This document shows, piece after piece, positions 11,233-51,810 of a DNA stretch of 64,000 bases. The position numbers and the translations under genes were made by a program. Every line of letters begins with the position of its first letter. Positions within the stretch are counted from its first letter, which is position 1. Source of the DNA: a virus; the IMG/VR virus record IMGVR_UViG_3300023301_000006, positions 1 to 64,000 of that record; one strand, written 5' to 3'. The notes below the pieces were generated by a model. That model did no database searches. It saw only the letters and a list, made by a program, of their open reading frames with translations, and was not told the DNA's origin.

Positions 11233-14200
11233 TTATCTTACAGGACAGTGACCACTTTCACATCCTGCTCCATCGTCTATCTCGAAGTCCGAACCATCTT
11301 CATAATCTGATAGTAACTCTTCGTCGAACTTTGGAAGTTCTTGAACCATATTCTTGTATTCGTCTTCAGTTATACTCTCGAAAGGAAGTAACTCATAAAA
11401 GCTATCATCTAATGATAAGAAAGATATTCCTACGAAACAATCCCAATTATCCCACAACCATTCCTCTACTAAGTCCCATTCATCTTTTCTAACATGGACA
11501 GTAATACTAGCATTATGGTCTACGAATTCTTCCATTAATAATTTGTACTCATCCAATTGTTCAATTGCACCTACGTCGTACTTAGTCCTACCCTTTGGAG
11601 CTTTAACAGGAAATTCAAATACTTTCGTAGAATGCTCTTCTCTAGTTTGTCCTACTTCTGGCTTCCATTCGAATCCGGAGTCTATCATAGACATCGCAAC
11701 AGGGTCTTTAGCTGATACTCTAACTCTTCTTATATAAAAAGGACTATGTGACCAATGAATACCCGAAGAAGCACTGTTAGGTAATATTGAAACTGTTCCT
11801 GCTGGTTGTGCTGTTGTTACTAATTCTGCTTTTGTTACATTATATTTCTTAGCTAATTCTTCATTCATGTTGTTTGCAACACTTCTCATGAATTTCAACA
11901 GCTTTTTCTTTTCATCTTGACTAATATTTCCTTTGTTTATAAAGTCTTGATATCCAGTCATTGAAACGCCAATTATTCTATCTTCTCTTGCAACATCATC
12001 CCACTCCAGTAAGTCCAACTCTTGTAGACTAATAATGAATGCTATATAAGTTGCCCATTCTACTGATTGCTCTAATTCATCATATAATATCCCTCCTGAT
12101 TCGTCTAAGAAAGATAACATGGATATAATGGTTAAATTACAATGTTGTTTCGATTTTAAAAGTATTTCCGCACCTTACCACACTTACTTTCATAAGCCAA
12201 CTTTAAGTTGTTGTAGTCTGGACTATACCATATTACATTTAAGTAATGAGATATTATAGTCTCTGAACATCCCCTATAAAATAAGGTTTTGATGCTGATT
12301 GTCCAATTCATACAATTTTTAACATTCGCGTTTATAGTTTCCTATTACGCTGTAGTTTGTATGACTCTAAGGAGTTTCCAGCAGTTTAATCTCTTTTAAA
12401 TCCACATGTTTGGTCTATGGATTAAGTCCTTCTGCGTCTGGTTTTCTTCTTTGAATCTCTTCTAGATTAGCTATTCCCACTTATATTAATCATAGACGCT
12501 ATTCATATGACCAGTCCTTAAAATGTAATAGGGACTGCTATATATTTCTATATAGGTTAGACTATATCATGACTCATTTGAGTCTCTTCCGCTTCGAATA
12601 CCAATAACTTGTATTCTACTCCTTTTCAGGATAGTCGTTGAACTTTAACAGTGTTGGAAGTTACATGTAACACTATTCTTAGCTGCTGATTGTCTTTGCC
12701 ATTACGCAGTAAGAGTTTCCAGCAATTCAAAAGATTTATAGAACCCAGTTTTTACTTTAGGCTCTCCAGAAACTTTCATAGTTTGAACATGCTCGTGTAA
12801 AGCCTCTCTTGCAGGTTTTTTCTTATACAGTACAGTGTTATTGCTCATTTGTCTATGTTTTATATCTGTGTCTATTTGCCATTTACCATTAACTTCTGTA
12901 TATAAGTTAGTCTTTGCATTTCTTGTTTCGTAATCGTCAGCAGACACTAAGGCAATTTCAGCTGCTCTCCTTACCATTTATATTCGAACATGTTCGTTAG
13001 GCATATCCCGTTCTCCTATGAACTGCTATATGTTGCCATATAGATTAGACTATATCTTCACTCTTATACATTTAAGCAAAAGAGGTTTCCTGTTTCCACT
13101 CACTTGAGTGTACGTCTTTCGACTAGTCGTTGCACCTTTTATAATTAATCTTCTTTTTATTTTTTTTACCAATCTTCCTTACAGAAGATTAATTATAACT
13201 TGGCTCAGAATTGTCTTAAGATACACTTAAGAGTTTCTCTGAATTTAAGAAATGTTTTTTTGTGTTGGAGGCATAAAATTTACCACCAACAACTATTGCT
13301 TCTGCTATTAAGCCATTAATATCTAACATATCAATAGGCTTTAGCTTAACTCTATGTCTGGTTATCTTACCACCGTTAGAATTTTTAATAATTCTGTCTA
13401 TTCCACTAAAAGACTCTTTTAAAGGTATATGACCACTTGCTGTGCCACCAAATGTCTTTAGGACCTCTCCCGCAGGACGAACATTATCATAGTTGAATAA
13501 GATAGTTTTTATTAAACCATCACTTGAACTAGCTTTGTAGTTGACTAAAAACTCTAAATAAATCTTTAATGATTCAGTCCAACCTCTTTTAGAATCTCCA
13601 ACTACAATCTCTAGTATAGAATTATTACTTAATGTCGTTGTTGTTAACTCTTGTCTAGCTAGTCTTGGAACAGGCTGATAGTCCTTGTGAATTATTTCTA
13701 TGTCTTGTCTTACTGGTTGTATCTTTTCAACGTCTTCTTTCAGTATTCTATATCCGACACCACTACCCAACATTAATAAGTACATTGCGTCAACTAGGTT
13801 AAATATATCGTCCATTGTGACATAACTACAATTAAAAGCACTTTGGAAATTTCTTTTAATGGATTCTGTCCCACCCGTATATCTGATTCTGCCAGAAGAA
13901 AATACTTTGAAATTGTACATCAAGTCAAATAATTCTTCTGCTTTCTCAGAGTCACCTTTGGGGTCTAACTCTATCATATAGTCCACAACTCTTGCGTTCA
14001 TTTCCAACCAAGTTTCTCGTCTATTTATGCCTTTAATAAATCTAGAGTATGTTCTATAGAAAGTAAATTTTGATAACTCTGAGTCAAATGGATTTGGGTC
14101 TCTAGCATAATCTCTTAAAAACTCTTTGTTCAAATATTTAAATTTCTTGTAAGGGTGCCACCTCTCCCTTATCTGTTTGTGCTTTTCTCTATATAATATA

Positions 14201-15619: not shown

Positions 15620-18600
15620 TTAACTATGTTTCTCACTTCTCATTTCTAATTTTCCATCGTCTGTTATTTTTTCAATTAAGTAAACTAAACTTTGCTTTGT
15701 CCTGGAATAATCTTTCCCCCTAAAAGTGGTTTCGCTCGACCTATATCCAGTAATCATAATTTTGTTGCCCCTACTAAAAAAACTACTATCTATAATAGAG
15801 CTATTCTTTTTGACTTGTCTATCGTAGTACGCAAAATCAGAACCTTTAAACTTTACAGTAACGACTCCACTCCTAGTTAATATTTGAGTCATATGTTTAT
15901 TCTTATTTCTGCTAAGGCAAGTTCCAATTATCGTTGATAAGTGAAATACTGGGTACTTGTCTTTCCAATAAAACTTCACAGGTTTTATTTTTAAGTCTTT
16001 AAATTTATCCACGAATGGATAATATTCATAGTCTATATAGTCTAATTCATTGTCTGTGGCATAATAGGATATAGAATCCATTTCCCATTTACCTATTGTT
16101 CCTTCAGTATAGTGGGACGCTTCTTCCACTATTATGATTTTATTGTACTCTTTTAAAAGTTCTTTTTCATTCTCTTTAATAAATTTTCTTAACTTATCTG
16201 CATCTTTCTCATAAGTAGACTCGAAAACTGATGACTCTACTAAATATTTGTCTTTCTTGTAAACAACTTTTAACTCTGGGTGTTCTACATTTAAAAATTC
16301 AATCATCATTTCTTGTAATGGAAAATATTTTTTGTCATCTACCTTTATTTCTTCGTTTGAACGTAGTATTTTTCTTAAGTACCACATTATTGAGCTATTC
16401 TTAACTTTTGTATTACTAAAAAATTTAGCATCAAATAGTCCAGCCATATTCCTTAAAGACAAGGAAGTTTTTACCTTTGCTTTTCCAGCAATATAATCCA
16501 TTAATAATTCTCTTCTGTCTTTTTCTTCAATGTTCCTGAAGGCATTTGACTTAATCAAGGATATATTTTTCCTCTTTGACGGTTTTATTCTTTTATAAAA
16601 GTCTCCATAGCTAGTGTATGGTCTACTCTCTACTATTTCAGTAACAAGGTCATCACCAACGTAAGACATTCCTTTTAGTCCGAATAATATAACTCCTCCA
16701 TCAAAGTCTGGGGTAAATACATATCCAGATTTATTGATGTCTGGAGGTGCTATTGTTATTCCAACTTGCTCCATATTACTAATTGCCACAGCTACTTTAC
16801 CATAGTTAGAAGATGTGTTCTTATCTCCATCTTGGTCTATTGCACCACTTTCAACTGTTAAACAAGCTGAATTCCAAGCTAAGTCATTATACTCATATGT
16901 TAAGTTTAAAATTTGCAAAGCTATCATAGAATAAGGTAAGGTATGATTCCGACTAAAACTATCATGTTGTTCCCACATTTTTGTGGGCATGGACTAACTC
17001 TTTAAAGTTTAATATCTCTCTAATAAGGTATTAAACTTTATCCACTGTTTGGAGAATAGGAATTTCACCTAAACTCTACTTCCCTTGCGGGAATAGTCTC
17101 TACACTCGCTTTCGCTAGCACGGGATTGTCATATCCATAAATGGACTTAGATTTCCCCGTTAGCACTAAATTAATAGTACACCCTATATTTATAGGTTAA
17201 GTGGAATGGGCAATTTTATTTACCCAAGTTGAGGAACTACACAATGATGCCATACGTAATTTATTATTTCCTCTCTTGCTCCAGTTCTTTCCTTCGCTTT
17301 ATCGAAGTAATCTTCTTTTAACTTATCTATTAATTTAGCTTTCTTCTTTGCTATGGCTTTTCTAGCCTTATGTGCCTCTACAACAGTAAAGCCAGATATG
17401 GATTCGTCCATTAGGATTTCCATAATGTCTTCTTGTGTAGCCGCAATGCCGTAACTTTTATCTAAGTGTTTCTTCATTGTCATTATCTCATCTTCGTTTA
17501 AGCCTTGTAGGTGCATTTCTTCATACCAAAGACTTATATCCTTTCTAAACTTAATAAACTTATCTAATGGTTGAATACTTCCTCCACTAGATGATAATCT
17601 CATTAATGAGTTTGCTGTTGCCATCTCCACCAATGAATGAGGTGCTACTTCTCTTATGGCTTTAGAACCCACCATTGTATCAAATTGGAATAGAGAAACA
17701 ATTTCACCTTTCGCAGCTTTGTCCCACATTTCTAAGTTGTCATACTCAAGGACAGCAGGAGATAAATACTTATCATAAGTCTCCCTTAGTGTTTCTTGTC
17801 TTTCCATCGCACCGTTGGTGATTAAATGATTCATAGTTATTCTAATTTTATCTAGAATCTTTACAGTTAAGAAGTCAAATTTGACTCCTCCCATATACAT
17901 CTTTATCCTATGTTTCCACAGGGACGGACTATTTCATGTTCTATTTTAAAATAGAACTCTTGCACTTCGACTGGGACAATATCCAGTCTACGCCTCTCGG
18001 CTAGTCTCTACATCTTTCTCTTGCTTCAATAATAGTTTTTATAAAGTTCTGAGGTTTTAAAAGCCCTATAAAGTTGGGAATGCCCCTTTAAATTTAAGTC
18101 TCTTAGGACTAAAGTTACTGAGTCATATACCTCAACTAGATTCCAATTGATATCATATTTGTAAACTTTTTTAGAACTTGTTGCACCGACATCAACTTTA
18201 CCAATATTAGAACCAACAACTCCTTTTTTAGATTCACTTATTTTTTATTGTTATTTACACTATTATTAAAACTTAAGACTTGACACGAGATTGCCATATT
18301 GCCGAAGCAACTTAGGTTTCCTCGTTAGCTTAACCCCTTTAATAAGGATTAAACACCCTTTTTGTCGTAAGGTTCACAAAATTTACTATAACTCTCACAA
18401 GTTATAGGGACTATATAATTAATCCGAATCTGACATGTCAAACTGAGTTGTAGGAACATCACTCGGAGACATCATCAAAGCATTCCTTTTATAATAAGGT
18501 TCATTATATATATAGATACCAGAGGCATGTATGCTTCTCTTGTCTATAATTCCCTCGAATGCTAATATCGTCTCCTGTAATTTTTTATCTTCATATTCTT

Positions 18601-20233
18601 CCAACTTAGACAAAAACTCTTGTTGAACTCCTCTTTCCTTTTCTCTATTGCCGAATATAACGTCTGCCAATGGTCAGTTAGCACCCCTCTCTTCTGGAAC
18701 CAATCCAGTTAAATATAATGCTTCTGACTCCTCGATACCTAAACCACGACAAGCAGATGTTATACTACTCCTAGAGCCAATTGTTCCAAAGGTGGCTATG
18801 TTTAATACTCTATCTTCTCCAAACTCTACATTTAAAGCCTTAAGTATTTGACCTCTCTGTGACTTTTGTGAGTCCAAGTCAATGTCCATAATGTCTGGTC
18901 TGTCTTTGTGGAGAAACCTCCACCAAGGAATGTCCCATTTTAAAGGGTTTATTTGTATTATGTCTATCAAGTAATTTATTAATAATCCTGTTGCTGAACC
19001 CCTTGAAGGTCCTACAAGACTGTCTCCCTCTTCCCACATTATTTCAACTAATCTCTTTGTTGTCAATAAATAATTAGCCATATTCTTACCAATTCTCTCA
19101 CTCGTTCCTAGTATATGTTCTAATTCTACATCCACTCTTTGTAGTACTTCTTCTGTTGGTTCAATATCTTTTTTACTCTTTATTCCTCTTAACGTATGAT
19201 AAATTAGAGCCTTATCATATCTGTCCTGGCTATTTAAGTATCTAGTAATATATTTGTACCCCTTAAACATTTCTTTTGTCTTAGAGTCAAATTCATGGTC
19301 CTCAACTGGAACTTTGGTTATATCCACTGATTGAGCCAGACTAATATTCTGACATTGCTCTCCTATAATCAATGTATTTCTAAAGCATTCGTCTATTTCT
19401 TCTTCTGGAATGTGATTGTGCATTATTTCCTTTATTTCTTTTTCTGACATCATATAGGTAAAACCATAAAAGGCATCGACCTCTCTCTCTCCTTCTTGAG
19501 ATTGTAAAAAAGCTCTGTGAATACTTCTATCTTCTTTTGACAGATAATGGGAGTCAGTAGTTATTATACTCTTAATGTCTTTCGAATCCCCTATTGATTT
19601 TATCATTCTATTCACCATAGTTTGTTCTTCTGATGTTGATGGTTGTAATTCAAAAAAGAAGTTGTCTTTCTCAAAAGCATTGATACACCATTCGATAAAC
19701 TTCTTAATCCTATCTTGAGCTACTGATTTTTCTATCTCACCATTATACATCCCCATTAAAGTATTAGGCAGAAAACCACCTAAACAAGCTGTTGTAGCCA
19801 TTAAGTGACCTCTGTTTGTACTAATAATTTCTTCTATTTGGGAATAAGTTATTGGAACTCTTCTCATTCCTCTATCATAGTAAGAATTGGTCCAAGCTTG
19901 AGACGATATCTTTTTTAATTGCTCATAACCGATTTCATCTTTCGCTATTAATATAAAATGATAATACTGTTGATTGTTCCCTAGTGAATCTACTAAATAT
20001 ATTTCGTCTCCAAAAGCCACAGTAAAGTTTTCATCTATAACTCCTTCTTCTACTAATTTGGTTCTATATTTGTCTGCTTTCACATGTGAGCTTAATACCT
20101 CATGGTCTGTTATTGCTAAACCACTTAATCCTAGCTCTATTGCCCTATCTATTAAGTCTGTAACTTTATTTGTAGAGTCTGCTAGTCTTAAGTTAGAATA
20201 ATCTGTATGATTGTGTGAAGAAAAATAATTCAC
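15620..20233 (-). CDS. dnaE: DNA polymerase III alpha (DnaE-type), interrupted by two introns
   Basis: Exons 20233-18422, 17897-17254 and 16973-15620 give 1269 residues in one frame. The N-terminal PHP domain starts F-S-S-H-N-H-T-D-Y-S and has A-I-T-D-H. The palm carries G-P-S-R-G-S-A-T-G and D-I-M-D-I-D-L-D, the catalytic Asp residues of C-family polymerases. Finger-domain sequence T-Q-F-D-M-S-D-S-D joins Y-M-G-G-V-K-F-D-F-L across intron 1, and I-N-Y-V joins E-Q-H-D-S-F-S across intron 2. A TGA at 18674 is read as Trp (G-A-N-W-P-L). This is the phage replicase. No beta-clamp gene is seen in the window, so it may use the host clamp. Confidence 0.85.
16974..17253 (-). ncRNA. Group I intron 2 of the polymerase gene (280 nt)
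   Basis: Exon end AATTACGT pairs over all 8 bases with guide GTGTAGTT; the intron ends in G after a CCCACA...TGTGGG hairpin. The P4-P6 signature (AACGGGGAAA ... CAATCCCGTGC on the reverse strand) and a P7 strand TTAGTCC are present. No ORF. Confidence 0.85.
17898..18421 (-). ncRNA. Group I intron 1 of the polymerase gene (524 nt)
   Basis: Core elements AACGAGGAAA ... CAATCTCGTG and P7 strand AAATAGTCC are present. The guide pairing I can find is short (GGAT with GTCC), so the exact 5' boundary is less certain than for the other introns. The extra length is a homing-endonuclease remnant at 18008-18241. Confidence 0.75.
18008..18241 (-). pseudogene. Remnant of a homing endonuclease (NUMOD1-like segment)
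   Basis: An open stretch inside the polymerase intron reads K-K-V-Y-K-Y-D-I-N-W-N-L-V-E-V-Y-D-S-V and later Y-K-N-Y-Y-W-S-K-R, with TGA as Trp. This resembles the NUMOD1 DNA-binding module found at the end of HNH and GIY-YIG intron endonucleases. No nuclease domain and no good start codon are present, so I read it as a decayed homing endonuclease. Confidence 0.55.
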
Positions 20234-35025: not shown

Positions 35026-35054
35026 TTGACTAATTGTGTTTATTTTGATATAAT
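35026..35054 (+). promoter_or_regulatory. Promoter of the gene at 35089
   Basis: TTGACT, 17 bases, TATAAT, extended -10. Confidence 0.75.
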
Positions 35055-35088
35055 ATATATAGAAGGAAAAAAAAGAAAGGAGTAAACT

Positions 35089-35343
35089 ATTAAATATTTA
35101 AATCATCTACTTGGAAAGAATGTAAGTATTGTTCACGATGATAAAGCGGACCTATTCAAACATAACCTGTATGGTGTGGTAAGAACCATTGGAGGAAACG
35201 ATAAGAATTTGGTATTGCAACTTACCAGCGGAAAAGTTATAAACTTTTCTGAAAGTGGAGAAATAGTTAAAGTTGAATACTCCAATGCAATGATTAGAGT
35301 TACTTATGCTAATGGAGTAAAAAAATTCTTGGATTTCTTTTAA
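35089..35343 (+). CDS. Small beta-rich protein with an ATT start
   Basis: 84 residues: a K-Y-L-N-H-L-L-G-K-N-V start, then V-R-T-I-G-G-N-D-K-N-L-V-L-Q-L and V-E-Y-S-N-A-M-I-R-V-T-Y. AAAGGAG is followed after six bases by ATT; there is no ATG, GTG or TTG near it in frame. The coding pattern is clear, so I take ATT as the start. TAA stop. No family recognised. Confidence 0.6.
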   Translation: MKYLNHLLGKNVSIVHDDKADLFKHNLYGVVRTIGGNDKNLVLQLTSGKVINFSESGEIVKVEYSNAMIRVTYANGVKKFLDFF

Positions 35344-35350
35344 AATGTTA

Positions 35351-35621
35351 TTGACAAATTACTATAATTTTGATATAATACAAGTATAGTAAAAAAATAA
35401 AACATATTAAATAATAATACGAAAAAAAGTTATTGACGAATTACTTATAATATGATATAATATAAGTATAGTAAAAAAATAAAACATATTAAATAACAAT
35501 ATGAAAAAAAAGTTATTGACAAATTACTTATAATATGATATAATATAAGTATAGTAAAAAAATAATATGAAGAAAAAAATGAGAAGAAGTTGTTGACAAA
35601 TTGAGTAAAATATTATATAAT
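35351..35621 (+). promoter_or_regulatory. Four tandem promoters
   Basis: TTGACA/TTGACG/TTGACA/TTGACA at 35351, 35433, 35516 and 35593, each with exactly 17 bases to TATAAT and an extended -10. The first three share long flanking sequence (ATAAGTATAGTAAAAAAATA and ACATATTAAATAA), so they are recent duplications. All read toward the gene at 35670. Confidence 0.8.
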
Positions 35622-35669: not shown

Positions 35670-36062
35670 ATGAAAATCACTATCAAAGATGTGTACGCAA
35701 GAATCGAACAGAACTTAGGTATTGACTTAACAGAACAGGGTGAATTAGCAATGAAGCAGTTAGAAGATGAAGCTAATCCATTCTCAGACGCAGACTTCAT
35801 CAAAAAAGGTGATATCGTTATCACTAAAGGTGGAGAAGGTAAGTCATTCATTGTTGTATTAGTTGATGAGAGATTAATCTTAGCTACTTTAGACCCTAAC
35901 TCAGGTAAAAAGCATGACTTGAAAGAAATTAACACTTATAATGCTCATCAAGATAAGAACAAAGTCTTCTTATCTGAACTAAGAAACAAGTTAACTTCAT
36001 TCTCTGATTGTGTTGTTATTGACAAGTGCAGAGTAGATAGTATTGTTGTTAATGTAAAGTAA
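35670..36062 (+). CDS. Hypothetical protein behind four promoters
   Basis: 130 residues (M-K-I-T-I-K-D-V-Y-A-R-I-E-Q ...), mixed alpha/beta, ending R-V-D-S-I-V-V-N-V-K. Its codon use is visibly less A-rich than its neighbours (GTTGTATTAGTTGAT-type runs), consistent with high expression. Ribosome site AAAAGGAG. Four stacked promoters upstream and a strong hairpin just after the stop suggest an abundant early protein. No family recognised. Confidence 0.6.
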   Translation: MKITIKDVYARIEQNLGIDLTEQGELAMKQLEDEANPFSDADFIKKGDIVITKGGEGKSFIVVLVDERLILATLDPNSGKKHDLKEINTYNAHQDKNKVFLSELRNKLTSFSDCVVIDKCRVDSIVVNVK

Positions 36063-36079
36063 TCTAAGTAAGTAAGGTT

Positions 36080-36110
36080 CTCTACCCACTCTTTAATTAG
36101 GGTGGGAGAG
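36080..36110 (+). terminator. Strong hairpin after the gene at 35670
   Basis: CTCT(A)CCCACTCT pairs with AGGGTGGGAGAG with one bulged A. There is no T run after it, so it could be a weak terminator or an mRNA-protecting 3' structure. Confidence 0.5.
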
Positions 36111-36119
36111 GTATCAACC

Positions 36120-36148
36120 TTGACAAAAGCACAAGAGTGTGATATAAT
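36120..36148 (+). promoter_or_regulatory. Promoter of the large structured RNA
   Basis: TTGACA, 17 bases, TATAAT, TG one base upstream. The expected start falls at the first bases of the closing stem of the RNA. Confidence 0.85.
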
Positions 36149-36156
36149 ACAAACAT

Positions 36157-36738
36157 GGTCTTTTAAAATTTAGTAATAACCACAACTAACCCAGTGAATA
36201 AAAAGTTTAACTAGCTTTTCTGGGACATATAGAAGATAGAGAGGTACGTTCTAAGGATATTTTGAATGTATAATCTTTTGCAGATAAGTAATTAAAAGCG
36301 AAAAGGAAGAAACTTCCAATTATAATATGTGTTGCAAATCTATTATTGTACTCAAAAGTACAAACCTAGTCGTTGTAATAATCCGTCTTCTAACCGAAGA
36401 TAACCTAAAATCTAGAGCCTATGGACGGCTTGTAGGGACTTAGGAATCCAACGAATACAATCAGTCTTGAACAGAGGAAACTCTGGTATAAGATTAGAAT
36501 TTGGTGCAAGTAGCCCTATGACTAAACAAAATTGGAATAACTTAAAATATAAAGTTATCAAGATGAATAGCGGGTGAAAGTTGCAAGTACACAATCTTGC
36601 TTAGGATTTTATTGGGGTAGAAAGTATGGGGGTAGCTCCTCTGTGCTCATCCTACTCTGCCTAGTGACTGAATATGATATGGTAATAGACTTGTAGAGTG
36701 AAGATTCAGTTGTGATTATTACTAAGTTTTAAAAGACT
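36157..36738 (+). ncRNA. Large structured RNA, ROOL-like
   Basis: About 580 nt without a usable reading frame, transcribed from a consensus promoter. Its two ends form a 20-bp stem (36158-36177 with 36718-36737) whose only deviation is one G.U pair. Inside are further hairpins and a GAGGAAACTC segment. Size, a long closing stem, a phage genome and a position directly before a tRNA array all match ROOL RNAs, described from Bacillota and phages and reported to assemble into large multimers. GOLLD is the alternative but is usually longer. The assignment is by architecture, not by alignment. Confidence 0.6.
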
Positions 36739-36745
36739 TGTTAAT

Positions 36746-36811
36746 GGGGGTGTAAAGAGGTCGACAGGTGCTTTAGTATACTGGACATGAGTTTAATTCT
36801 CATCACCTCCA
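36746..36811 (+). tRNA. tRNA-like element, anticodon unclear
   Basis: Acceptor GGGGGTG/CACCTCC, a good T arm (ATGAG TTTAATT CTCAT), discriminator A and encoded CCA. The D and anticodon arms are shortened, and I cannot place a standard 7-base anticodon loop. It follows the large RNA by 8 bases. It may be a degenerate tRNA. Confidence 0.4.
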
Positions 36812-36821
36812 CCATAAACTT

Positions 36822-36893
36822 GGGAATATAGTCAAGCGGTTAAGACACTACACTTTCACTGTAGTATCGCAAGTTCGATTCTTGCTATTCTCA
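36822..36893 (+). tRNA. tRNA-Glu (UUC)
   Basis: Cloverleaf with acceptor GGGAATA/TATTCTC, anticodon loop CTTTCAC and encoded CCA (36894-36896). Confidence 0.9.
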
Positions 36894-36949
36894 CCATATA
36901 CCTTTTCCCCTTTGTTGTGTGGGAAATTAAATATAGCACAACTACATTA

Positions 36950-37022
36950 TTGCCCTTTCGTCTAATGGTTAGGACGCCAGACTTTCACTCTGGAAACTTG
37001 AGTTCGACTCTCAAAAGGGTAA
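36950..37022 (+). tRNA. tRNA-Glu (UUC), second copy
   Basis: Acceptor TGCCCTT/AAGGGTA, anticodon loop CTTTCAC, encoded CCA. It differs from the first Glu tRNA in most stems, so it is not a recent duplicate. Confidence 0.85.
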
Positions 37023-37030
37023 CCAAATAA

Positions 37031-37113
37031 GGAGTAGTATGCAAATGGTTAAGCAAACGGGTTGCTAACTCGTGGCGGTTAAACGCTTGTAGGTTCAAGT
37101 CCTATCTACTCTT
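37031..37113 (+). tRNA. tRNA-Ser (GCU)
   Basis: Acceptor GGAGTAG/CTACTCT, loop TTGCTAA, long variable arm, encoded CCA. Confidence 0.85.
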
Positions 37114-37120
37114 CCAATAT

Positions 37121-37195
37121 GTAAATATAGCTCAGTTTGGTTAGAGCATCTGGTTGCCAATCAGAATGTCGTGGGTTCAATTCCCACTATTTACT
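37121..37195 (+). tRNA. tRNA-Gly (GCC)
   Basis: Acceptor GTAAATA/TATTTAC, loop TTGCCAA, encoded CCA. Confidence 0.88.
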
Positions 37196-37204
37196 CCAAA
37201 ATAA

Positions 37205-37278
37205 TGCAGAGTGGAACGTTGGTTTTTCCATCGAGGCTCATATCCTTGATTACATGGGTTCGATTCCCATCTCTGCAT
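37205..37278 (+). tRNA. tRNA with CAU anticodon (Met)
   Basis: Acceptor TGCAGAG/CTCTGCA, anticodon stem CGAGG/CCTTG with loop CTCATAT, encoded CCA. Confidence 0.75.
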
Positions 37279-37284
37279 CCATAA

Positions 37285-37373
37285 GGAAGGTTACTCAAAT
37301 GGTTATACGAGCGTAGCTTTGAAAGCTAATGTGTCTGAAATACGGCTTGGGGGTTCGAATCCCTCACCTTCTT
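37285..37373 (+). tRNA. tRNA-Ser (UGA)
   Basis: Acceptor GGAAGGT/ACCTTCT, loop TTTGAAA, long variable arm, encoded CCA. Confidence 0.88.
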
Positions 37374-37382
37374 CCAAAATGT

Positions 37383-37454
37383 GTATGTATAGCTAAAAGG
37401 CTTAGCATTCGGCTGTTAACCGAAAGTATATTGGTTCGAATCCAATTACATACG
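37383..37454 (+). tRNA. tRNA-Asn (GUU)
   Basis: Acceptor GTATGTA/TACATAC, loop CTGTTAA, encoded CCA. Confidence 0.9.
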
Positions 37455-37457
37455 CCA

Positions 37458-37728
37458 TAAGTCCCACTATGAGGGCATAAAGGCTTTGATGGAAACCCCA
37501 TCTGAAAGAGCGTATGGAAGCTCTAGTGTCTAAATCACATTAGTTTATAGATACGACATTTAAAAACAAATTTTTAAGAAATTGAATTGTGATAGCCTAT
37601 TAAGACTAAGGGCTTAAAATACAGAGTCTCACCATTGGCGGCAACCGAAAGTCGTGGGCTTAATTGCCCTTTCAAGTTATTAGGAACCCATTGGGGCTAA
37701 AGGTTTAAAATAGATAGTCCTATTATAA
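37458..37728 (+). other. Unresolved structured segment inside the tRNA array
   Basis: 271 bases with no ORF. Two D-arm-like repeats are visible (GACTaaGG...AGTC near 37603 and GGCTaaaGG...AGTC near 37695). There is also an anticodon-arm-like GGCGGCAACCG and a GGGCTTAATTGCCC hairpin. It could hold degenerate tRNAs or another structured RNA. I could not fold a complete tRNA. Confidence 0.35.
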
Positions 37729-37799
37729 CTAGGTGTGGGATAATGGTTGTCCGCTAGCTTTGGGAGCTAGTGACGGGGGTTCGATTCCTCCCACTTAGA
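37729..37799 (+). tRNA. tRNA-Pro (UGG)
   Basis: Acceptor CTAGGTG/CACTTAG, anticodon stem CTAGC/GCTAG with loop TTTGGGA. Unlike the others it has no encoded CCA. Confidence 0.82.
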
Positions 37800-37866
37800 A
37801 GTGGATATAAGTATATTGTATCTAGTTCTAAGTGCACAATAGTTTTGAGTAAATAAAAAAATGTTG

Positions 37867-37895
37867 TTGCAAGATTATTCATTTAATGATATAAT
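37867..37895 (+). promoter_or_regulatory. Promoter inside the tRNA array
   Basis: TTGCAA, 17 bases, TATAAT, extended -10, then the shared ATAAGTATAGAAAG leader. It starts a second tRNA transcript. Confidence 0.75.
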
Positions 37896-37924
37896 ATAAG
37901 TATAGAAAGAAATAAAAAAAATAA

Positions 37925-37998
37925 GGTCGTCTAATCCAACTGGCAGAGATAATAGGTTTAAGCCCTATCAAGTGTGGGTTCAACTCCCACGGCGACTA
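37925..37998 (+). tRNA. tRNA-Leu (UAA)
   Basis: Acceptor GGTCGTC/GGCGACT, anticodon loop TTTAAGC, encoded CCA. It lacks the long variable arm normal for bacterial tRNA-Leu, so the amino acid is assigned from the anticodon only. Confidence 0.7.
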
Positions 37999-38008
37999 CC
38001 AATAATAA

Positions 38009-38079
38009 TGTGATATAGTCAAGTGGTAAGACAATAGACTTTGAATCTATCAGCCTTGGTTCGAATCCAAGTATCACAA
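38009..38079 (+). tRNA. tRNA-Gln (UUG)
   Basis: Acceptor TGTGATA/TATCACA, loop CTTTGAA, encoded CCA. Confidence 0.9.
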
Positions 38080-38082
38080 CCA

Positions 38083-38251
38083 GAATGAAGGAGTAGAGGT
38101 CGCACCTCGAGGTAGGATGAAAGCTATCCGTAAAGGGAAAGCGGATAAATATCTCTGATTGATAGTTAGAGAAAAGTTTTTTGTAGTCTTAATAATACCA
38201 CCAACGCATTGGCTCTAAACGTTGAAAAAAATATAGAGAGCCATTAAGTAT
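38083..38251 (+). other. Unresolved structured segment between tRNA-Gln and tRNA-His
   Basis: 169 bases with no ORF. It contains several short hairpins (GGTCGCACC region, GGATgaaagcTATCC, and GGCTCT...AGAGCC near 38210-38242). It may be a decayed tRNA cluster or a separate small RNA; no family recognised. Confidence 0.3.
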
Positions 38252-38323
38252 GGTGGTTATAGCTCAATGGTAGAGCACATGGTTGTGGTCCGTGCTACTT
38301 GGGTTCGATTCCCAATAATTACC
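38252..38323 (+). tRNA. tRNA-His (GUG)
   Basis: Has the extra G at position -1 facing C73, acceptor GTGGTTA/TAATTAC, loop TTGTGGT, encoded CCA. Confidence 0.9.
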
Positions 38324-38330
38324 CCAATAA

Positions 38331-38404
38331 GCTCCAATAGCTCAATCTGGTAGAGCAACTGCCTTGTAAGCAGTAGGTTGTAGGTTCAATTCCTATTTGG
38401 AGCT
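38331..38404 (+). tRNA. tRNA-Thr (UGU)
   Basis: Acceptor GCTCCAA/TTGGAGC, loop CTTGTAA, encoded CCA. Confidence 0.92.
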
Positions 38405-38443
38405 CCAAAATCTTTTCCATACCAAAGGAAAAGTGTTTAATAT

Positions 38444-38525
38444 GGTATAGCTGAGCACTGGTGAGCTCCGCAGACTGTAAATTTGTCGTCGAAAGGCTTT
38501 GTTGGTTCAACTCCAACCTATACCA
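38444..38525 (+). tRNA. tRNA-Tyr (GUA)
   Basis: Acceptor GGTATAG/CTATACC, loop CTGTAAA, long variable arm, encoded CCA. Confidence 0.9.
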
Positions 38526-38533
38526 CCAAATAT

Positions 38534-38606
38534 GTTCCAGTAACTCAGTTGGGAGAGTGTCTGCCTTACAAGCAGAAGGTCGTAGGTTCGAGTCCTACTT
38601 GGAACA
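38534..38606 (+). tRNA. tRNA-Val (UAC)
   Basis: Acceptor GTTCCAG/TTGGAAC, loop CTTACAA, encoded CCA. Confidence 0.92.
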
Positions 38607-38615
38607 CCAAAATAT

Positions 38616-38687
38616 GCGGATATCGTATAATGCTTATTACCTCTGGCTTCCAACCAGATGACGAGAGTTGAATTCTCTCTATCCGCT
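38616..38687 (+). tRNA. tRNA-Gly (UCC)
   Basis: Acceptor GCGGATA/TATCCGC, loop CTTCCAA, encoded CCA. Confidence 0.9.
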
Positions 38688-38713
38688 CCAAATTACTAAT
38701 AGGAGGCAAAGAA

Positions 38714-38806
38714 ATGTGAATATGTGAAAAATGTTCAAAAACTTATAATTATCGTCCAAAAGATGATATTTGTGAGAAATGTACTGCAGATTGTTATTTT
38801 CAATAA
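38714..38806 (+). CDS. Tiny zinc-finger-like protein
   Basis: 30 residues, M-W-I-C-E-K-C ... I-C-E-K-C-T-A-D-C, with four or five Cys in two C-x-x-C pairs. The second codon is TGA (Trp), so standard-code gene finders would not see it. AGGAGG lies 8 bases before the ATG. It sits within the tRNA array, so it is probably co-transcribed with tRNAs. Confidence 0.6.
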
Positions 38807-38824
38807 AAAGGAGGAGGTACTACA

Positions 38825-39145
38825 ATGATGACTGAAGAAGAATTATTTGAAGACTTTGACACTTGAGAAGATAGGTTCTTAGAAGCTTACGAAAATGGTG
38901 TGAAATTTGATGAAAGTCTTATGGGAAATTTAGCTTGGGAAGCAGAAGTACAAAATGAACATGACAAGCTTCGTTGGCAAATAGTAATGGAATCTATATT
39001 CCAAGTCAAGAACAGATACTTTTGTATTGACTGGCAAAAAGGTTTAACAGAGAGCCAAATAGATTCATTCTCAGAACAACCATATGAAGTTGAGAAGATA
39101 GAAAGAGAAGTTACTAAGATGGTTGTTACTTGGGTAAAGAAATAA
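38825..39145 (+). CDS. Hypothetical protein, paralogue of the gene at 10692
   Basis: 106 residues with TGA at 38864 (F-D-T-W-E-D). The second half aligns with the 110-residue product at 10692-11024 (S-I-F ... Y-x-V-E-x-I-E-x-E). Ribosome site GGAGGAGG. It is embedded in the tRNA array between tRNA-Gly and a CAU tRNA. Function unknown. Confidence 0.65.
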
Positions 39146-39153
39146 CCATATTA

Positions 39154-39227
39154 GGACCTGTAACTCAGTTGATTAGAGTATTCGACTCATAATCGAACGG
39201 TCATTGGTTTAAATCCAATCAGGTCCA
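39154..39227 (+). tRNA. tRNA with CAU anticodon (probably Ile2)
   Basis: Acceptor GGACCTG/CAGGTCC, loop CTCATAA, encoded CCA. The GGACC start resembles lysidine-modified tRNA-Ile2 of Bacillota, which would read AUA, a very frequent codon here. Elongator Met is the alternative. Confidence 0.75.
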
Positions 39228-39235
39228 CCAAATAT

Positions 39236-39315
39236 GGGTGTGTAATCTTAAACTGAGCTGAGCTTAGGTGAGTCTCCAACACTCATGATAAAACGTTTGA
39301 TTCGTTACATGCCTG
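39236..39315 (+). tRNA. tRNA-Trp (CCA), atypical D arm
   Basis: Acceptor GGGTGTG/CATGCCT, anticodon stem TGAGT/ACTCA with loop CTCCAAC, G73 and encoded CCA. The D arm is longer than usual (17-base loop if ATCT pairs AGGT), and the T stem has a mismatch. Confidence 0.65.
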
Positions 39316-39323
39316 CCAATTAT

Positions 39324-39418
39324 GAGAGTGTATAGCAGTGAAGTACTGTGGCGGTCTTCAAAACCGTACGGCTGAGGTCCAAACTTGGTTTATGAGGGAG
39401 CGTTACCTTCCATTCTCG
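39324..39418 (+). tRNA. tRNA with UCA anticodon: candidate UGA decoder
   Basis: Acceptor GAGAGTG/CATTCTC (7 bp with one G.U), D stem GCAGT/ACTGT, anticodon stem GCGGT/ACCGT with loop CTTCAAA (anticodon UCA), G73 and encoded CCA. About 21 bases are extra between the anticodon arm and the acceptor: either a long variable arm or a duplicated T-arm-like hairpin (CTGAG GTCCAAA CTTGG). G73 is a tryptophanyl-tRNA synthetase determinant, and TGA encodes Trp in this element. The length is also tRNA-Sec-like, but no selenocysteine context is seen. Confidence 0.7.
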
Positions 39419-39424
39419 CCAACA

Positions 39425-39590
39425 ATAAATGTTTGCGGAGCATACCAAAACCGTTTTAATAGTGTGGGAAGTCCAGAGAGTGGACGCTTAAGACAATAAT
39501 GTGAGTTAAATAAAGGTGGGTAATCGTCTTTCCTTGTGAAGATTGAACCACTTTAACTCGATGCTAGGTTAAAATCCTAGCCCCACTACA
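39425..39590 (+). other. tRNA-like structured segment at the end of the array
   Basis: A perfect T-arm-like hairpin (GCTAGG TTAAAAT CCTAGC) is followed by CCCACT. A partial acceptor partner AGTGTGG and a D-arm-like GTCC AGAGAGT GGAC lie 100 bases upstream. A long hairpin (GAGTTAAA...TTTAACTC) lies between them. It could be a tRNA with an insertion or another small RNA. Confidence 0.35.
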
Positions 39591-39699
39591 TATACATATA
39601 AACATACACTCTTAATAAATTAAATCTAAATGAATTTGGAAACAGCTCTCTATTAGGAGAAGAGTTGTACAACATAAAAATTTACCAAGGAGGAAGATT

Positions 39700-47575: not shown

Positions 47576-48058
47576 TTAGTTTTTAAGCACTGTAAAATTA
47601 TCCAAGTCCAGTCCTTTGAATCTTCCTATGTCTAATACAAACCTTCTAATTCCTTTTTTAAACCCATCTCTTTTAATAAGCCTAATTACCCTTGTGTACC
47701 ATTTAGAGTCAATAAATATAGGAATAACATTTTTTGCCCCAACAACTTTGGCAAACTGTTCAGGACCATCAACACCAGTAACTAAAATATTCACACAGTG
47801 TTCATGTAAATGCTCAACACTCGTGCCATATGTATTACCATAGATACTCATTTGTTGGAGTATGTTTAAGTTTTTAACTTCATCTTTAGTTATAAAATGA
47901 TAATCGACCCCGTCTACTTCATTAGGTCTTTGCGGTCTGGTAGTAAAACTAACCAACTTCCTCCACTGCAAAGAGGATTTTAAAAACTTACTCTCAAAAA
48001 AAGTTTTTCCTGAGCCGCTAGGTCCTACTATTACTATTACTACTGCATGTAATTTCAC
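47576..48058 (-). CDS. Guanylate-kinase-like protein
   Basis: 160 residues. P-loop G-P-S-G-S-G-K-T and S-F-T-T-R-P-Q-R-P-N-E-V-D-G-V-D-Y-H-F are clear guanylate kinase signatures. Shorter than host Gmk and without the usual C-terminal lid sequence, so the substrate could be another nucleotide. Last gene of the NAD-salvage operon. Confidence 0.75.
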   Translation of the reverse strand: MKLHAVVIVIVGPSGSGKTFFESKFLKSSLQWRKLVSFTTRPQRPNEVDGVDYHFITKDEVKNLNILQQMSIYGNTYGTSVEHLHEHCVNILVTGVDGPEQFAKVVGAKNVIPIFIDSKWYTRVIRLIKRDGFKKGIRRFVLDIGRFKGLDLDNFTVLKN

Positions 48059-48068
48059 ACTTACCTCC

Positions 48069-48671
48069 TTAATCCAACATCTTATAATCTGCTTTTGGGT
48101 TCTTAAATATTTCTAAATATCTTTCTCTAATTTCTTTATAATTCTCTATTATTACTTCAGGACAGAATTGCTCTATGCAATCAAAATCGTCATTCTCAAA
48201 GGCTTTTCTTATCTTCGTGGCACTAAGTGCATTAAATACTTTTTGTCGCTCTACGTAGATTATAGAAACTCGTTTTTGTATAAAATGACTATGTTTGAAC
48301 CAAAGTTTGATAAAATTTAAGTCATCAGAGTAATAAATACTAAAGTGCTTTTGGCGAATTCTTGCTACAATATTGTAATATAAATATTCTCCCCACTTAT
48401 CTAATTCCATCATTCCATTTTCTTTCCCCCAGTCAGGTAATTCCATAACTTTAATTTTCGACACGTCTTCTTCTGAAAAATTCTTAGATATGTGTCTGTA
48501 CAGATATGTTACTCTTTCTGAATGGGAGAATGGGTTTCTTAGAGTTTCTTGTTTGTTGCTTGAGCCTAATACAATAAGCACCATGTCGTTTTCCTTACAG
48601 GCTTTCTCAATCATCCATAAATGTGCATTGTGCATTGGTTGCATTCTTGCTAAAAATACTCCTACTTTCAT
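48069..48671 (-). CDS. NMN adenylyltransferase (NadM-like)
   Basis: 200 residues. V-F-L-A-R-M-Q-P-M-H-N-A-H-L is the H-x-G-H-like nucleotidyltransferase motif (here H-N-A-H). S-A-T-K-I-R-K-A-F near residue 155 is the I-S-x-T-x-x-R-like motif. It would join NMN and ATP to make NAD. Follows nadR and a small membrane protein in the same operon. Confidence 0.75.
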   Translation of the reverse strand: MKVGVFLARMQPMHNAHLWMIEKACKENDMVLIVLGSSNKQETLRNPFSHSERVTYLYRHISKNFSEEDVSKIKVMELPDWGKENGMMELDKWGEYLYYNIVARIRQKHFSIYYSDDLNFIKLWFKHSHFIQKRVSIIYVERQKVFNALSATKIRKAFENDDFDCIEQFCPEVIIENYKEIRERYLEIFKNPKADYKMLD

Positions 48672-48672
48672 A

Positions 48673-48990
48673 TTAAAAGTCCTCCTTTTTTACGTGATAC
48701 TTAGCATAATTTTGAATTGCACTCTTATATATTTCTTTACCTCTCACTAAGAGGAAAACGGCAATTAAGAATAGAATTATTATTCCTACCAACATAAAGT
48801 TAAACAGGAAGTATAGAAGCGTGAACAACAACGTAAAAAACAATATCGATTCCATAGTTCCAAGTATAATAGTAGATAAGACATCAACTTGTCCGTGGTA
48901 TGCCGTAGGGAAAAAATAGTATCTCATGAAAACTGGTAAAGAGAATAGAGCTATTGAAAGCAACATACAAATTTGTATAGACATACCCAT
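48673..48990 (-). CDS. Small membrane protein of the NAD operon
   Basis: 105 residues with three hydrophobic stretches (about 3-22, 38-58, 60-82). No motif I can name. Overlaps the nadR stop by one base (TAATG), so it is translationally coupled to it. Confidence 0.55.
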   Translation of the reverse strand: MGMSIQICMLLSIALFSLPVFMRYYFFPTAYHGQVDVLSTIILGTMESILFFTLLFTLLYFLFNFMLVGIIILFLIAVFLLVRGKEIYKSAIQNYAKYHVKKEDF

Positions 48991-50015
48991 TAAACAACAC
49001 CTCCTGAATTGATTAAATCATTGACCAACTTAAAAGATTTATTAAATCTGTTTAGATAGTCTCCATTGATTATCTTATACTCTATCCCAAGTTCATCAAA
49101 CATTCCTTTTAATACTTCATTGTTGTCTTCCCTAACCTTTTCCTCACCTTGGTCACGTAGTCCGTCTGCAACCCATTTTACATCAGGTTCAAGAAACAAG
49201 TATAAATCATACTCTTGATTTTTTGCCATCTCATTATATAGTTTTTTCTCATTATTGAAGTATATATCAAAATAGTATTGTGTTACAACTACCTCACTAT
49301 CAATGAACAATACTTTGTTTGAGTCTTTTACCTTATCTATCTCATGTACTTTCTGTTTAAAGGCAATCTCATCGAACATATCCTTTGTAAGGAAGTTGGA
49401 ATATTCTTCGCAAATATCTCTCCCATACTCTGCAACGTAATTGGTATTGAATACTCTTGCTAAGTTTTTAACAAGAGTGGATTTACCACAACTCTCTGTT
49501 CCAATGACTGCAATTCTTTTAACAAATTCCGCACGAACGTAATTAGGCATCTTGTCCCAATTCCCATAGACATCTTGTCTAATTTCTGTCGCACTTACGT
49601 TTACTACATTTCTTTCATTGTCGATTACGATATGTTTCGCATTTGGGTATAATCTATCAAAGGTTTCAGAATATCCAATCTCTGAGCTAAAGACAAAATC
49701 TATTTTTTCCCCTATCTCTTTTTTAATTTTCTCTGCTCCTTCTTCCCATGAATAATCTTCAACCCCATAATCATCTTCAATTTCTATTATGAACACGTTG
49801 TCTATCTCTGAAGCAAGTTTCCCCAACCAAGAGAGTCTTGTGGAAGGGTCTACATAAGGAAAGTTGTCCTTGATACTTAGTTTCTTCTCTCTCTTTTCTG
49901 AATGTGTCATTACAACATATAGTTTATCTACTAAATTTGACGCATAAGTTATTGCAAACACATGCCCTGAATGTAATGGATAAAATTTACCACCAATAAA
50001 ACCTACTGTTTTCAT
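48990..50015 (-). CDS. nadR: NadR-like bifunctional NMN adenylyltransferase / ribosylnicotinamide kinase
   Basis: 341 residues. The N-terminal half starts F-I-G-G-K-F-Y-P-L-H-S-G-H (nucleotidyltransferase) with N-V-S-A-T-E-I-R. The C-terminal half has P-loop G-T-E-S-C-G-K-S-T and the Walker B-like L-F-I-D-S-E. The DNA-binding domain of enterobacterial NadR is absent. It would phosphorylate nicotinamide riboside to NMN and adenylate it. With pnuC and the NadM-like gene it makes a salvage route from imported nicotinamide riboside to NAD. Confidence 0.82.
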   Translation of the reverse strand: MKTVGFIGGKFYPLHSGHVFAITYASNLVDKLYVVMTHSEKREKKLSIKDNFPYVDPSTRLSWLGKLASEIDNVFIIEIEDDYGVEDYSWEEGAEKIKKEIGEKIDFVFSSEIGYSETFDRLYPNAKHIVIDNERNVVNVSATEIRQDVYGNWDKMPNYVRAEFVKRIAVIGTESCGKSTLVKNLARVFNTNYVAEYGRDICEEYSNFLTKDMFDEIAFKQKVHEIDKVKDSNKVLFIDSEVVVTQYYFDIYFNNEKKLYNEMAKNQEYDLYLFLEPDVKWVADGLRDQGEEKVREDNNEVLKGMFDELGIEYKIINGDYLNRFNKSFKLVNDLINSGGVV

Positions 50016-50027
50016 ACTATTAACCTC

Positions 50028-50714
50028 CTATAATATCTTAAGAACTCTACGGAACATTCCATGAAATCTACCAATGTCTCTATCAAGATGATAGTGTCCG
50101 TAATACCATTGATAATCATGCTTGTGCTCTCTTAGTCTATTTCGAATAACGTTCATTTGAACTTCTGTGGGGTCGTCATAGTTGTTTTCCACAAGCTTTT
50201 CAGCAATTGAGTAAGGAGGTGCGTGTGTAATAACAAAGTCAATGTTCTTCTGACACTCCTCAATTGCTTTTATTGCTCTAATAGCTTCTTCATAAGTTGG
50301 TTCTTCTTCTTTCCACCAAGAAACAAACTCTGTTCTAAAGGCTTTGTCATGACTTCTTGCTCCGCCGAATGTCAAGAAAGTTTTTCCTTGAATATCATAC
50401 ACTTGACCTCTTTTTAAATGAAATACAGAATCATTAATTTTCCCAACCTTACCACCATACTTGTCAATAACAGGATATTGGTGAAGTAAATTAAAATTCT
50501 CATGGTTGCCGTCAACGAATAGAGTTGTAAAACTCTTTTCACTCAACCAATCCAACCAATACCTCATCTCGCTATTGTCTTTCCAAATTATACCAAAATC
50601 GCCACAGATAATAACAACATCTTCTTTAGTCATTTTCCGTTGGTCTGGAAAGTTATCTATACTTAGTCTTCTAATGTCAATGTTACCATGGGTGTCCCCA
50701 GTAATATAAATCAT
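50028..50714 (-). CDS. Metallophosphoesterase
   Basis: 228 residues. G-D-T-H-G, C-G-D-F-G, D-G-N-H-E and I-T-H-A-P, plus Y-Y-G-H-Y-H near the end, are the calcineurin-like metal motifs. Substrate unknown. It lies between family B and nadR. Confidence 0.8.
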   Translation of the reverse strand: MIYITGDTHGNIDIRRLSIDNFPDQRKMTKEDVVIICGDFGIIWKDNSEMRYWLDWLSEKSFTTLFVDGNHENFNLLHQYPVIDKYGGKVGKINDSVFHLKRGQVYDIQGKTFLTFGGARSHDKAFRTEFVSWWKEEEPTYEEAIRAIKAIEECQKNIDFVITHAPPYSIAEKLVENNYDDPTEVQMNVIRNRLREHKHDYQWYYGHYHLDRDIGRFHGMFRRVLKIL

Positions 50715-50728
50715 CGTTTCACTCTCCT

Positions 50729-51046
50729 TTAAATTTCTTTGTACAAATACTCTATATTCTTTAAATCAGCAATCTCATAAATTTCTTCATTAGAACGAAC
50801 TTCTTTCATTTCGAGATAAGTGTTTACACTTCCATAGTTTACCATTTTAGTGTTGTATCTATTAGTATAAATTCTATAACATAAATCTCTAGTATACATA
50901 TTCCAACGGTTGTTTATTAAAGGCTCCTGGCAAAATGAAATGTACCCTAATCTATCAAGTTCTTTGCACAGTTCTCTTTCGTCTTCGCCATTTCGGACTC
51001 TTACTATCGTTGTTTGTCCATTTAGGATTTCCTCATTTATTATCAC
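50729..51046 (-). CDS. Family B small protein
   Basis: 105 residues with E-L-C-K-E-L-D-R-L-G-Y (family B core with the following W-S-G diverged) and a Y-L-Y-K-E-I ending. First gene after the promoter at 51087. Confidence 0.55.
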   Translation of the reverse strand: MIINEEILNGQTTIVRVRNGEDERELCKELDRLGYISFCQEPLINNRWNMYTRDLCYRIYTNRYNTKMVNYGSVNTYLEMKEVRSNEEIYEIADLKNIEYLYKEI

Positions 51047-51086
51047 ACCTAACTCCTCCTTTTTTTTCTTTTTCTCTTATATTAAT

Positions 51087-51115
51087 ATTATATCACTTTT
51101 TAGATATTTCTGCAA
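51087..51115 (-). promoter_or_regulatory. Promoter of the family B/phosphoesterase/nadR operon
   Basis: TTGCAG, 17 bases, TATAAT, extended -10. Confidence 0.7.
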
Positions 51116-51141
51116 TAAAAAAATGCAGTTTTTACGCTGTA

Positions 51142-51810
51142 CTATGCTTGTTGATTCATTTTGTTCCAATTATATAAACCATACACTGAATTTACTAAAT
51201 AAGCAATCCACATAACCAACACAGAAATATCAGTTCCACCATTACTCAACGCATAAATCCAAAGGCATATGGAAGCCACATTAACGCCTATCCATAACAC
51301 CCATTGTTCTACATAACGCATCACCATTAAAATCATTGCTATAATAGATAGAATAGTTGATATTGAATCAAAGTAAGGCATATTACCACCAAGAGAAGCC
51401 AACCATTGCCCATAAAATAAAATGGCTACAATTGCAATTACGAACCAAGTAAAACGTTGTTTTTGAGTCATAATTTTAGTTTTAACTTCTTTGACTTTTG
51501 AATTCATATATTTTCGCCACAATAGAATACCAACAAATTGCATTGGTAAGAAAAATATTAGGTTTAACATCACTTCTCCGTAAAATTTCCATGAATAAGC
51601 CACCCAAGCATATGCTAATACGTTAACAATACCAACGTAGTAATTAGATATTTTACCTTTGGCTGCTAAAACTACACACCATATACCAGTTAAAGATGCA
51701 GTTACTCCAATCAGACCATCTCCCCAATAAAGGGATAATGATAATATTAATAGGGTAGATACCCCCAACCATATTTTTTCAAACGTCTTCCAATCATTAA
51801 AGTAATTCAT
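51142..51810 (-). CDS. pnuC: PnuC nicotinamide riboside transporter
   Basis: 222 residues, seven hydrophobic segments. Family features: G-K-I-S-N-Y-Y-V-G-I-V-N-V near segment 3, F-Y-G-E-V-M-L-N-L, and the C-terminal S-V-Y-G-L-Y-N-W. It would bring nicotinamide riboside into the cell by facilitated diffusion, with phosphorylation by NadR trapping it. It is the last gene of the upstream transcript; nadR follows 1.1 kb further on, behind a new promoter. Confidence 0.85.
   Translation of the reverse strand: MNYFNDWKTFEKIWLGVSTLLILSLSLYWGDGLIGVTASLTGIWCVVLAAKGKISNYYVGIVNVLAYAWVAYSWKFYGEVMLNLIFFLPMQFVGILLWRKYMNSKVKEVKTKIMTQKQRFTWFVIAIVAILFYGQWLASLGGNMPYFDSISTILSIIAMILMVMRYVEQWVLWIGVNVASICLWIYALSNGGTDISVLVMWIAYLVNSVYGLYNWNKMNQQA

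What the first reader, a model, noticed from the sequence alone, without database searches (positions are those of the whole stretch)
36157..36738. ROOL-like giant RNA between an early gene and the tRNA array
About 580 nt without a gene, under its own consensus promoter, closed by a 20-bp helix of its two ends and followed 8 bases later by tRNAs. Size, context and closing helix match ROOL RNAs. It would be an instance in a UGA-recoded element.
Basis: partly seen in the sequence, partly recalled or inferred. Interest (0 to 1): 0.72.

Follow-up and report, generated by a model that had tools for sequence, protein, structure and literature searches.

The report
Phage ROOL RNA beside message-less tmRNA
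A bacterial virus that reads the stop codon UGA as tryptophan carries a divergent but genuine copy of ROOL, a large RNA known to build hollow RNA-only cages, and right behind it sits a tiny tmRNA reduced to its tRNA-like part, of a kind reported to jam the host's ribosome-rescue system.

Summary
The finding is right. Rfam's ROOL model (RF03087) matches window 36166-36726 over its full length, 293 bits against a cut-off of 99 (E 2.7e-66). The RNA starts at a perfect TTGACA-N17-TATAAT promoter and is closed by a 23-bp helix plus 7 further pairs. ROOLs fetched from other viral contigs and Erysipelotrichaceae/Bacilli MAGs are at most 50% identical to it; in a 14-sequence alignment 48 of 61 consensus pairs show compensatory changes. 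It is a new, divergent member of a known kind. UGA recoding is supported but not special: other ROOL phages here use the standard, UGA-recoded or UAG-recoded code.

One correction adds something. The gene 8 nt after ROOL is not a tRNA but a 69-nt tmRNA reduced to its tRNA-like domain (TLD), without tag message, keeping the alanine identity pair G3:U70. Such genes recur in viral contigs (32 distinct sequences by one strict pattern). A second, diverged ROOL phage (L075) has the same ROOL-then-TLD order. A TLD-only tmRNA is known from phage DS6A, and a similar molecule inhibits tmRNA. I propose one transcript, cut by RNase P, yielding ROOL cages, a trans-translation decoy and tRNAs. What the cage does remains unknown.

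The parts
36120..36148 (+). Perfect sigma-70-type promoter TTGACA-N17-TATAAT with extended TG
   Evidence: 12 of 12 consensus bases; 8 such sites in the window vs 0.04 expected
36157..36738 (+). ROOL RNA
   Evidence: RF03087 at 36166-36726, 293.2 bits, cut-off 99.1, E 2.7e-66, model 1-574; fold z -6.4; covariation among 14 ROOLs
36157..36187 (+). 5' strand of closing helix P1
   Evidence: 23 + 7 pairs with 36708-36738; an own-sequence closing helix in all 15 correctly oriented ROOLs
36708..36738 (+). 3' strand of closing helix P1
36517..36562 (+). Variable linker (approximate limits), the stretch that is disordered inside the cage in solved ROOLs
   Evidence: unpaired A-rich model stretch in the Rfam alignment and poorly conserved in alignment A2; disorder from PMC12286853
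36746..36814 (+). Message-less tmRNA: tRNA-like domain only, G3:U70, encoded CCA
   Evidence: RF00023 44.8 bits, E 8.2e-16, model ends 1 and 374 both matched, middle deleted; acceptor 7 of 7 pairs; pattern expected 0.00 times by chance
36822..38687 (+). tRNA array (Glu, Glu, Ser, Gly, Met, Ser, Asn, Pro, Leu, Gln, His, Thr, Tyr, Val and one more tRNA found by Rfam only)
39154..39230 (+). tRNA-Met (CAT), end of array
39324..39421 (+). Candidate tRNA with anticodon TCA (possible UGA decoder), tentative
   Evidence: RF01852 24 bits, below the 47-bit cut-off; CTTCAAA anticodon loop shared with the TCA tRNAs of L061 and L072

Best explanation
The region is a ROOL RNA gene of a Firmicutes-type phage with SPbeta-like replication genes. 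It is transcribed from its own consensus promoter together with the message-less tmRNA and the tRNAs behind it (inferred: promoter present, no terminator-like site before the tmRNA). RNase P cutting the 5' end of the tmRNA would release ROOL's 3' end just past the closing helix (inferred). ROOL folds into the family's ornate structure (supported by the covariance model and covariation) and, by homology, self-assembles into an octameric RNA cage (shown for other members, not here). The released 69-nt tmRNA keeps the alanine identity pair but has no message, so it most likely acts as a decoy that ties up SmpB and dampens host trans-translation (reported for a similar molecule, inferred here). 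What the cage contains or does is unknown; since ROOL sits in tRNA/tmRNA regions, handling of translation RNAs or ribosomal parts is my preferred guess (about 35%).
For: RF03087 293 bits, full length; P1 helix and fold z -6.4; 48 of 61 consensus pairs with compensatory change; P1 in all 15 correctly oriented relatives; perfect promoter at the helix start; only terminator-like sites on the + strand at 37171 and 38412, the first lying inside a tRNA; tRNA-array context in most ROOL loci; TLD-only tmRNA with 7 of 7 acceptor pairs and G3:U70; the same order in L075; no SmpB gene in the record; inhibition of tmRNA by a DS6A-like TLD (PMC4131195; PMC11915505).
Against: No expression data. ROOL cages were solved for other members no closer than about 50% presumed identity, and the kissing contacts were not verified in this copy. 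Only 4 of 18 ROOL records hold a TLD-only tmRNA and 1 of 17 further TLD-only records holds a ROOL, so the two need not act together. The window TLD has an unusual T-loop (TTTAATT) and a weak P2 stem.
Confidence: 0.93

Rival explanations
1. It is a different, unclassified large phage RNA that only resembles ROOL in size, context and closing helix.
For: At most 50% identical to any other ROOL fetched.
Against: 293 bits over the full model with conserved internal motifs (GTAGCCC, GGGTGAAAGTT, CAATC).
Confidence: 0.02
2. ROOL and the tmRNA domain stay joined: the natural product is a ~660-nt ROOL with a tRNA-like domain on its 3' end, displayed on the cage surface.
For: Only 8 nt separate them; fusing RNAs, including a suppressor tRNA precursor, to the 3' end of other ROOLs does not disturb the octamer (Ling et al. 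as reviewed in PMC12515178).
Against: An intact acceptor stem should be an RNase P substrate (established knowledge); in L075 the gap is 52 nt and in L069, L064 and L034 1.4-9.4 kb or the reverse order.
Confidence: 0.12
3. The tmRNA domain is a decayed remnant of a full phage tmRNA and does nothing.
For: Score just under the cut-off, weak P2 stem, unusual T-loop; full tmRNAs occur in other ROOL phages.
Against: Acceptor 7 of 7, G3:U70 and CCA intact; 21 distinct relatives all keep G3:U70 and P2 sums to 117 pairs vs 33 +/- 4 in shuffles, so the class is under selection.
Confidence: 0.15
4. The adjacency of ROOL and TLD-only tmRNA is chance: both simply collect in phage tRNA arrays.
For: Both are array genes; 1 of 17 further TLD-only records has ROOL.
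Against: Immediate adjacency in two phages whose ROOLs are 44% identical; 7 of 18 ROOL records hold some tmRNA form.
Confidence: 0.6

Closest known systems
ROOL RNA (Rfam RF03087; cryo-EM octamer, Kretsch et al. 2025, PMC12286853)
   Same: Full-length match to the covariance model, P1 closing helix, variable linker, phage tRNA-array context.
   Different: At most 50% identical to the ROOLs fetched here; encoded in a UGA-recoded phage; followed at once by a TLD-only tmRNA; multimers not shown.
TLD-only tmRNA of mycobacteriophage DS6A (PMC4131195, PMC11915505)
   Same: tRNA-like domain of tmRNA without tag message, phage-encoded.
   Different: Other host group; here in a tRNA array directly behind ROOL; inhibition not tested for this copy. 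The DS6A sequence itself was not compared.
GOLLD RNA
   Same: Large phage RNA near tRNAs that forms a cage (PMC12286853).
   Different: No GOLLD match at E up to 1 in 36000-39400.
UGA-recoded phages (table 4, e.g. crAss-like; PMC11210395)
   Same: In-frame TGA in long genes, tRNA-rich genome.
   Different: SPbeta-like replication genes; TGA used sparingly (29 TGA, 172 TGG in the ORFs listed).

Membership tests
ROOL (RF03087) | Match to the Rfam covariance model above its curated cut-off | tested here: met
   293.2 vs 99.1 bits, model 1-574
ROOL (RF03087) | P1 helix closing the RNA, conserved by covariation | tested here: met
ROOL (RF03087) | Conserved internal stems with compensatory changes | tested here: met
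   48 of 61 pairs
ROOL (RF03087) | Phage or prophage location, often near tRNAs | tested here: met
ROOL (RF03087) | Octameric RNA-only cage with kissing-loop bridges | not testable with these tools
   needs mass photometry or cryo-EM; bridge loops were not located with confidence in this copy
ROOL (RF03087) | Abundant non-coding transcript | not testable with these tools
   no RNA-seq; promoter only
tmRNA, TLD-only form | tmRNA tRNA-like domain (TCGACAGG, GGAC-T-arm) with message part absent | tested here: met
   RF00023 E 8.2e-16 in 69 nt; 44.8 bits is below the full-length cut-off of 47; relatives at 55-76 bits
tmRNA, TLD-only form | Alanine identity G3:U70 and CCA end | tested here: met
tmRNA, TLD-only form | Binds SmpB and inhibits trans-translation | not testable with these tools
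   reported for a similar molecule
Genetic code 4 (UGA = Trp) | In-frame UGA at positions of conserved tryptophan | tested here: inconclusive
   W at pol 520 and primase 165; Y at RecJ 557; Y or I at RecJ 89; N at primase 126: fits Trp, few sites

The most novel reading that the evidence does not exclude
Phages pair ROOL cages with message-less tmRNA decoys: one transcript yields a cage and a trans-translation blocker acting on the same targets (ribosomes, SmpB or charged tRNAs), which would give ROOL its first functional context.
Probability: 0.12. Interest if true: 0.85.

Novelty: new member of a known kind. Interest (0 to 1): 0.42.

Why it matters
It confirms a divergent ROOL in a UGA-recoded phage and shows that ROOL phages span three genetic codes. 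It also places ROOL directly before a message-less tmRNA in two diverged phages. ROOL's function is an open question; a neighbour whose likely action (blocking ribosome rescue) can be assayed gives a concrete experimental handle. The recurrence of TLD-only tmRNAs in viral contigs seems little noted: the papers read name one phage case, DS6A.

Tried and rejected
1. ROOL pattern AACCCAGTGAA..CTGGGAC: its eight new hits held no ROOL; replaced by a 3' motif.
2. A pseudoknot in the message-less tmRNA looked attractive by eye but did not exceed shuffles clearly (102 vs 95 +/- 4); rejected.
3. A covariance model of the small tmRNA (R1) lost the acceptor stem through misalignment; RF00023 was used instead.
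4. Other spacers of the tRNA array (37460-37728, 38083-38252, 39233-39600) fold only weakly better than shuffles (z -1.7 to -2.1), and the blastn search of the fetched loci (output cut short) showed no relative in another phage.
5. ROOL as a consequence of recoding: rejected; ROOL occurs in standard-, UGA- and UAG-recoded phages.
6. In one search the rows L102 and L103, and the row L103, were read on the wrong strand; they are not counted.
7. No match to the ROOL/tmRNA stretch in PLSDB plasmids; only tRNA matches in INPHARED.

Full report
Observation. Window 36157-36738 is a 582-nt stretch without a plausible gene. A perfect TTGACA-N17-TATAAT promoter lies at 36120-36148, so transcription should begin at about the first base of the closing helix. 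The two ends form 23 contiguous base pairs, a mismatch and 7 more pairs; the whole stretch folds at -159.9 kcal/mol against -122.5 +/- 5.9 for shuffles, z -6.4.

Identity. cmscan against Rfam 15 gives ROOL RF03087 at 36166-36726, 293.2 bits against a cut-off of 99.1, E 2.7e-66, over the whole model. No GOLLD match appears at E up to 1 in 36000-39400. With a conserved 3' ROOL motif I fetched further ROOLs from IMG/VR and confirmed them with the Rfam model, and from Erysipelotrichaceae and Bacilli MAGs. The window copy is at most 50% identical to any of them; contig 3300001097_000063 carries the same phage. In an alignment of 14 ROOLs, 48 of 61 consensus pairs have changes on both sides, and all 15 correctly oriented ROOLs have a closing helix of their own sequence.

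The phage and its code. The record is an IMG/VR virus record of 72,423 bp. Its DNA polymerase, RecJ-like exonuclease and primase are closest to SPbeta-group and other Firmicutes phages. In-frame TGA occurs in many long ORFs. ORFs listed with code 4 can only end in TAA or TAG, so the telling point is that homology continues through TGA. The alignable TGA codons meet W (polymerase 520), W and N (primase 165, 126), Y (RecJ 557) and Y or I (RecJ 89) in SPbeta and Geobacillus phage relatives, which fits tryptophan but rests on few sites. Recoding is not special to this ROOL: L061, L065 and L072 gain much coding length when TGA is read through; the RecJ gene of the L061 record holds 2 TGA and that of the L063 record 8 TAG, while others hold none. 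Several ROOL loci carry candidate suppressor tRNAs with anticodon TCA (L061, L067, L072) or CTA (L063, L075).

The neighbour. The gene 8 nt after the ROOL helix is not a tRNA. The 69 nt at 36746-36814 match the first and last parts of the tmRNA model with the message part missing (E 8.2e-16; 44.8 bits, cut-off 47). The acceptor stem is complete, position 3:70 is G:U, and CCA is encoded. A strict pattern for such short tmRNAs found 49 viral stretches with 32 distinct sequences; two or three of these (L044, L052) fit poorly and L052 is a 372-nt match. Most of those tested score above the tmRNA cut-off at about 80 nt, often in tRNA arrays. In 21 short tmRNAs compared, G3:U70 is invariant and the P2 stem sums to 117 pairs against 33 +/- 4 in shuffles. 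Such a form is known: mycobacteriophage DS6A has a TLD-only tmRNA, and a similar molecule strongly inhibits tmRNA, perhaps by titrating SmpB (Mao et al. 2009, as cited in PMC4131195, and PMC11915505; the original is not held).

Is the pairing with ROOL real? Of 18 ROOL-bearing viral records found through the ROOL motif, 4 hold a TLD-only tmRNA (this phage, L064, L069, L075) and 3 a longer one (L063, L072, L073). L034 adds a fifth record with ROOL and TLD-only tmRNA, found from the tmRNA side. Immediate adjacency occurs twice, in this phage and in L075, whose ROOL is 44% identical to this one and where a stretch resembling a terminator follows the tmRNA. But only 1 of 17 further TLD-only records examined has a ROOL, and both genes favour tRNA arrays. 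The association is suggestive, not proven.

Mechanism. Shown here: ROOL membership and fold, the promoter, the gene order, the intact tRNA-like domain. Inferred: one transcript over ROOL, tmRNA and tRNAs; RNase P cutting at 36746 sets ROOL's 3' end; ROOL builds a cage as its relatives do (PMC12286853); the message-less tmRNA blocks host trans-translation. The record holds no SmpB gene, in keeping with a decoy that uses the host's SmpB. What the cage does is not settled by anything found here; no function is known for ROOL. The confidence given for the best explanation refers to ROOL membership; I put the decoy step at about 0.5 and a joint role of cage and decoy at about 0.12.

Verdict. The RNA is a new, divergent member of a known family. 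The added value is its neighbour and the recurrence of message-less tmRNAs in phages.

Noticed in passing
window 36746-36814; also L004, L005, L007, L013, L019, L021, L034-L037, L041, L042, L046, L069, L075 and others: A recurrent class of ~70-85-nt message-less tmRNAs in viral contigs, mostly in tRNA arrays, with invariant G3:U70 and a conserved P2 stem.
   Followed up: partly
window 35026-35621: Tandem, repeated consensus promoters (three perfect at 35351, 35516, 35593, near-perfect at 35026 and 35433) in diverged ~80-bp repeats upstream of the gene before ROOL; 8 perfect promoters in the window vs 0.04 expected.
   Followed up: partly
window 39324-39421: Candidate tRNA with anticodon TCA (CTTCAAA loop, odd T-arm), missed by ARAGORN and below the tRNA-Sec cut-off; possible UGA decoder.
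   Followed up: partly
window 12538-12809 and 13026-13291 (-): Two group I introns interrupting an anaerobic ribonucleotide reductase gene.
   Followed up: no
window 15620-20233 (-): DNA polymerase in three pieces (604, 226 and 456 aa) separated by about 520 and 230 bp; introns, inteins or split genes, with no Rfam intron match there.
   Followed up: no
window 37460-37728 and 38083-38252: Two unannotated 170-270-nt spacers inside the tRNA array, weakly structured (z -1.7 and -2.1), no Rfam match.
   Followed up: partly
window 47576-51810 (-) and 62691-63410 (+): NMN transporter, cytidylyltransferase-like/AAA protein, guanylate-kinase-like and metallophosphatase genes; and a Rep_3 plasmid-type initiator, so the phage may replicate like a plasmid at some stage.
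   Followed up: no
L021 1621-1716: Pistol ribozyme 2.3 kb from a message-less tmRNA in viral contig 2716884398_000001.
   Followed up: no
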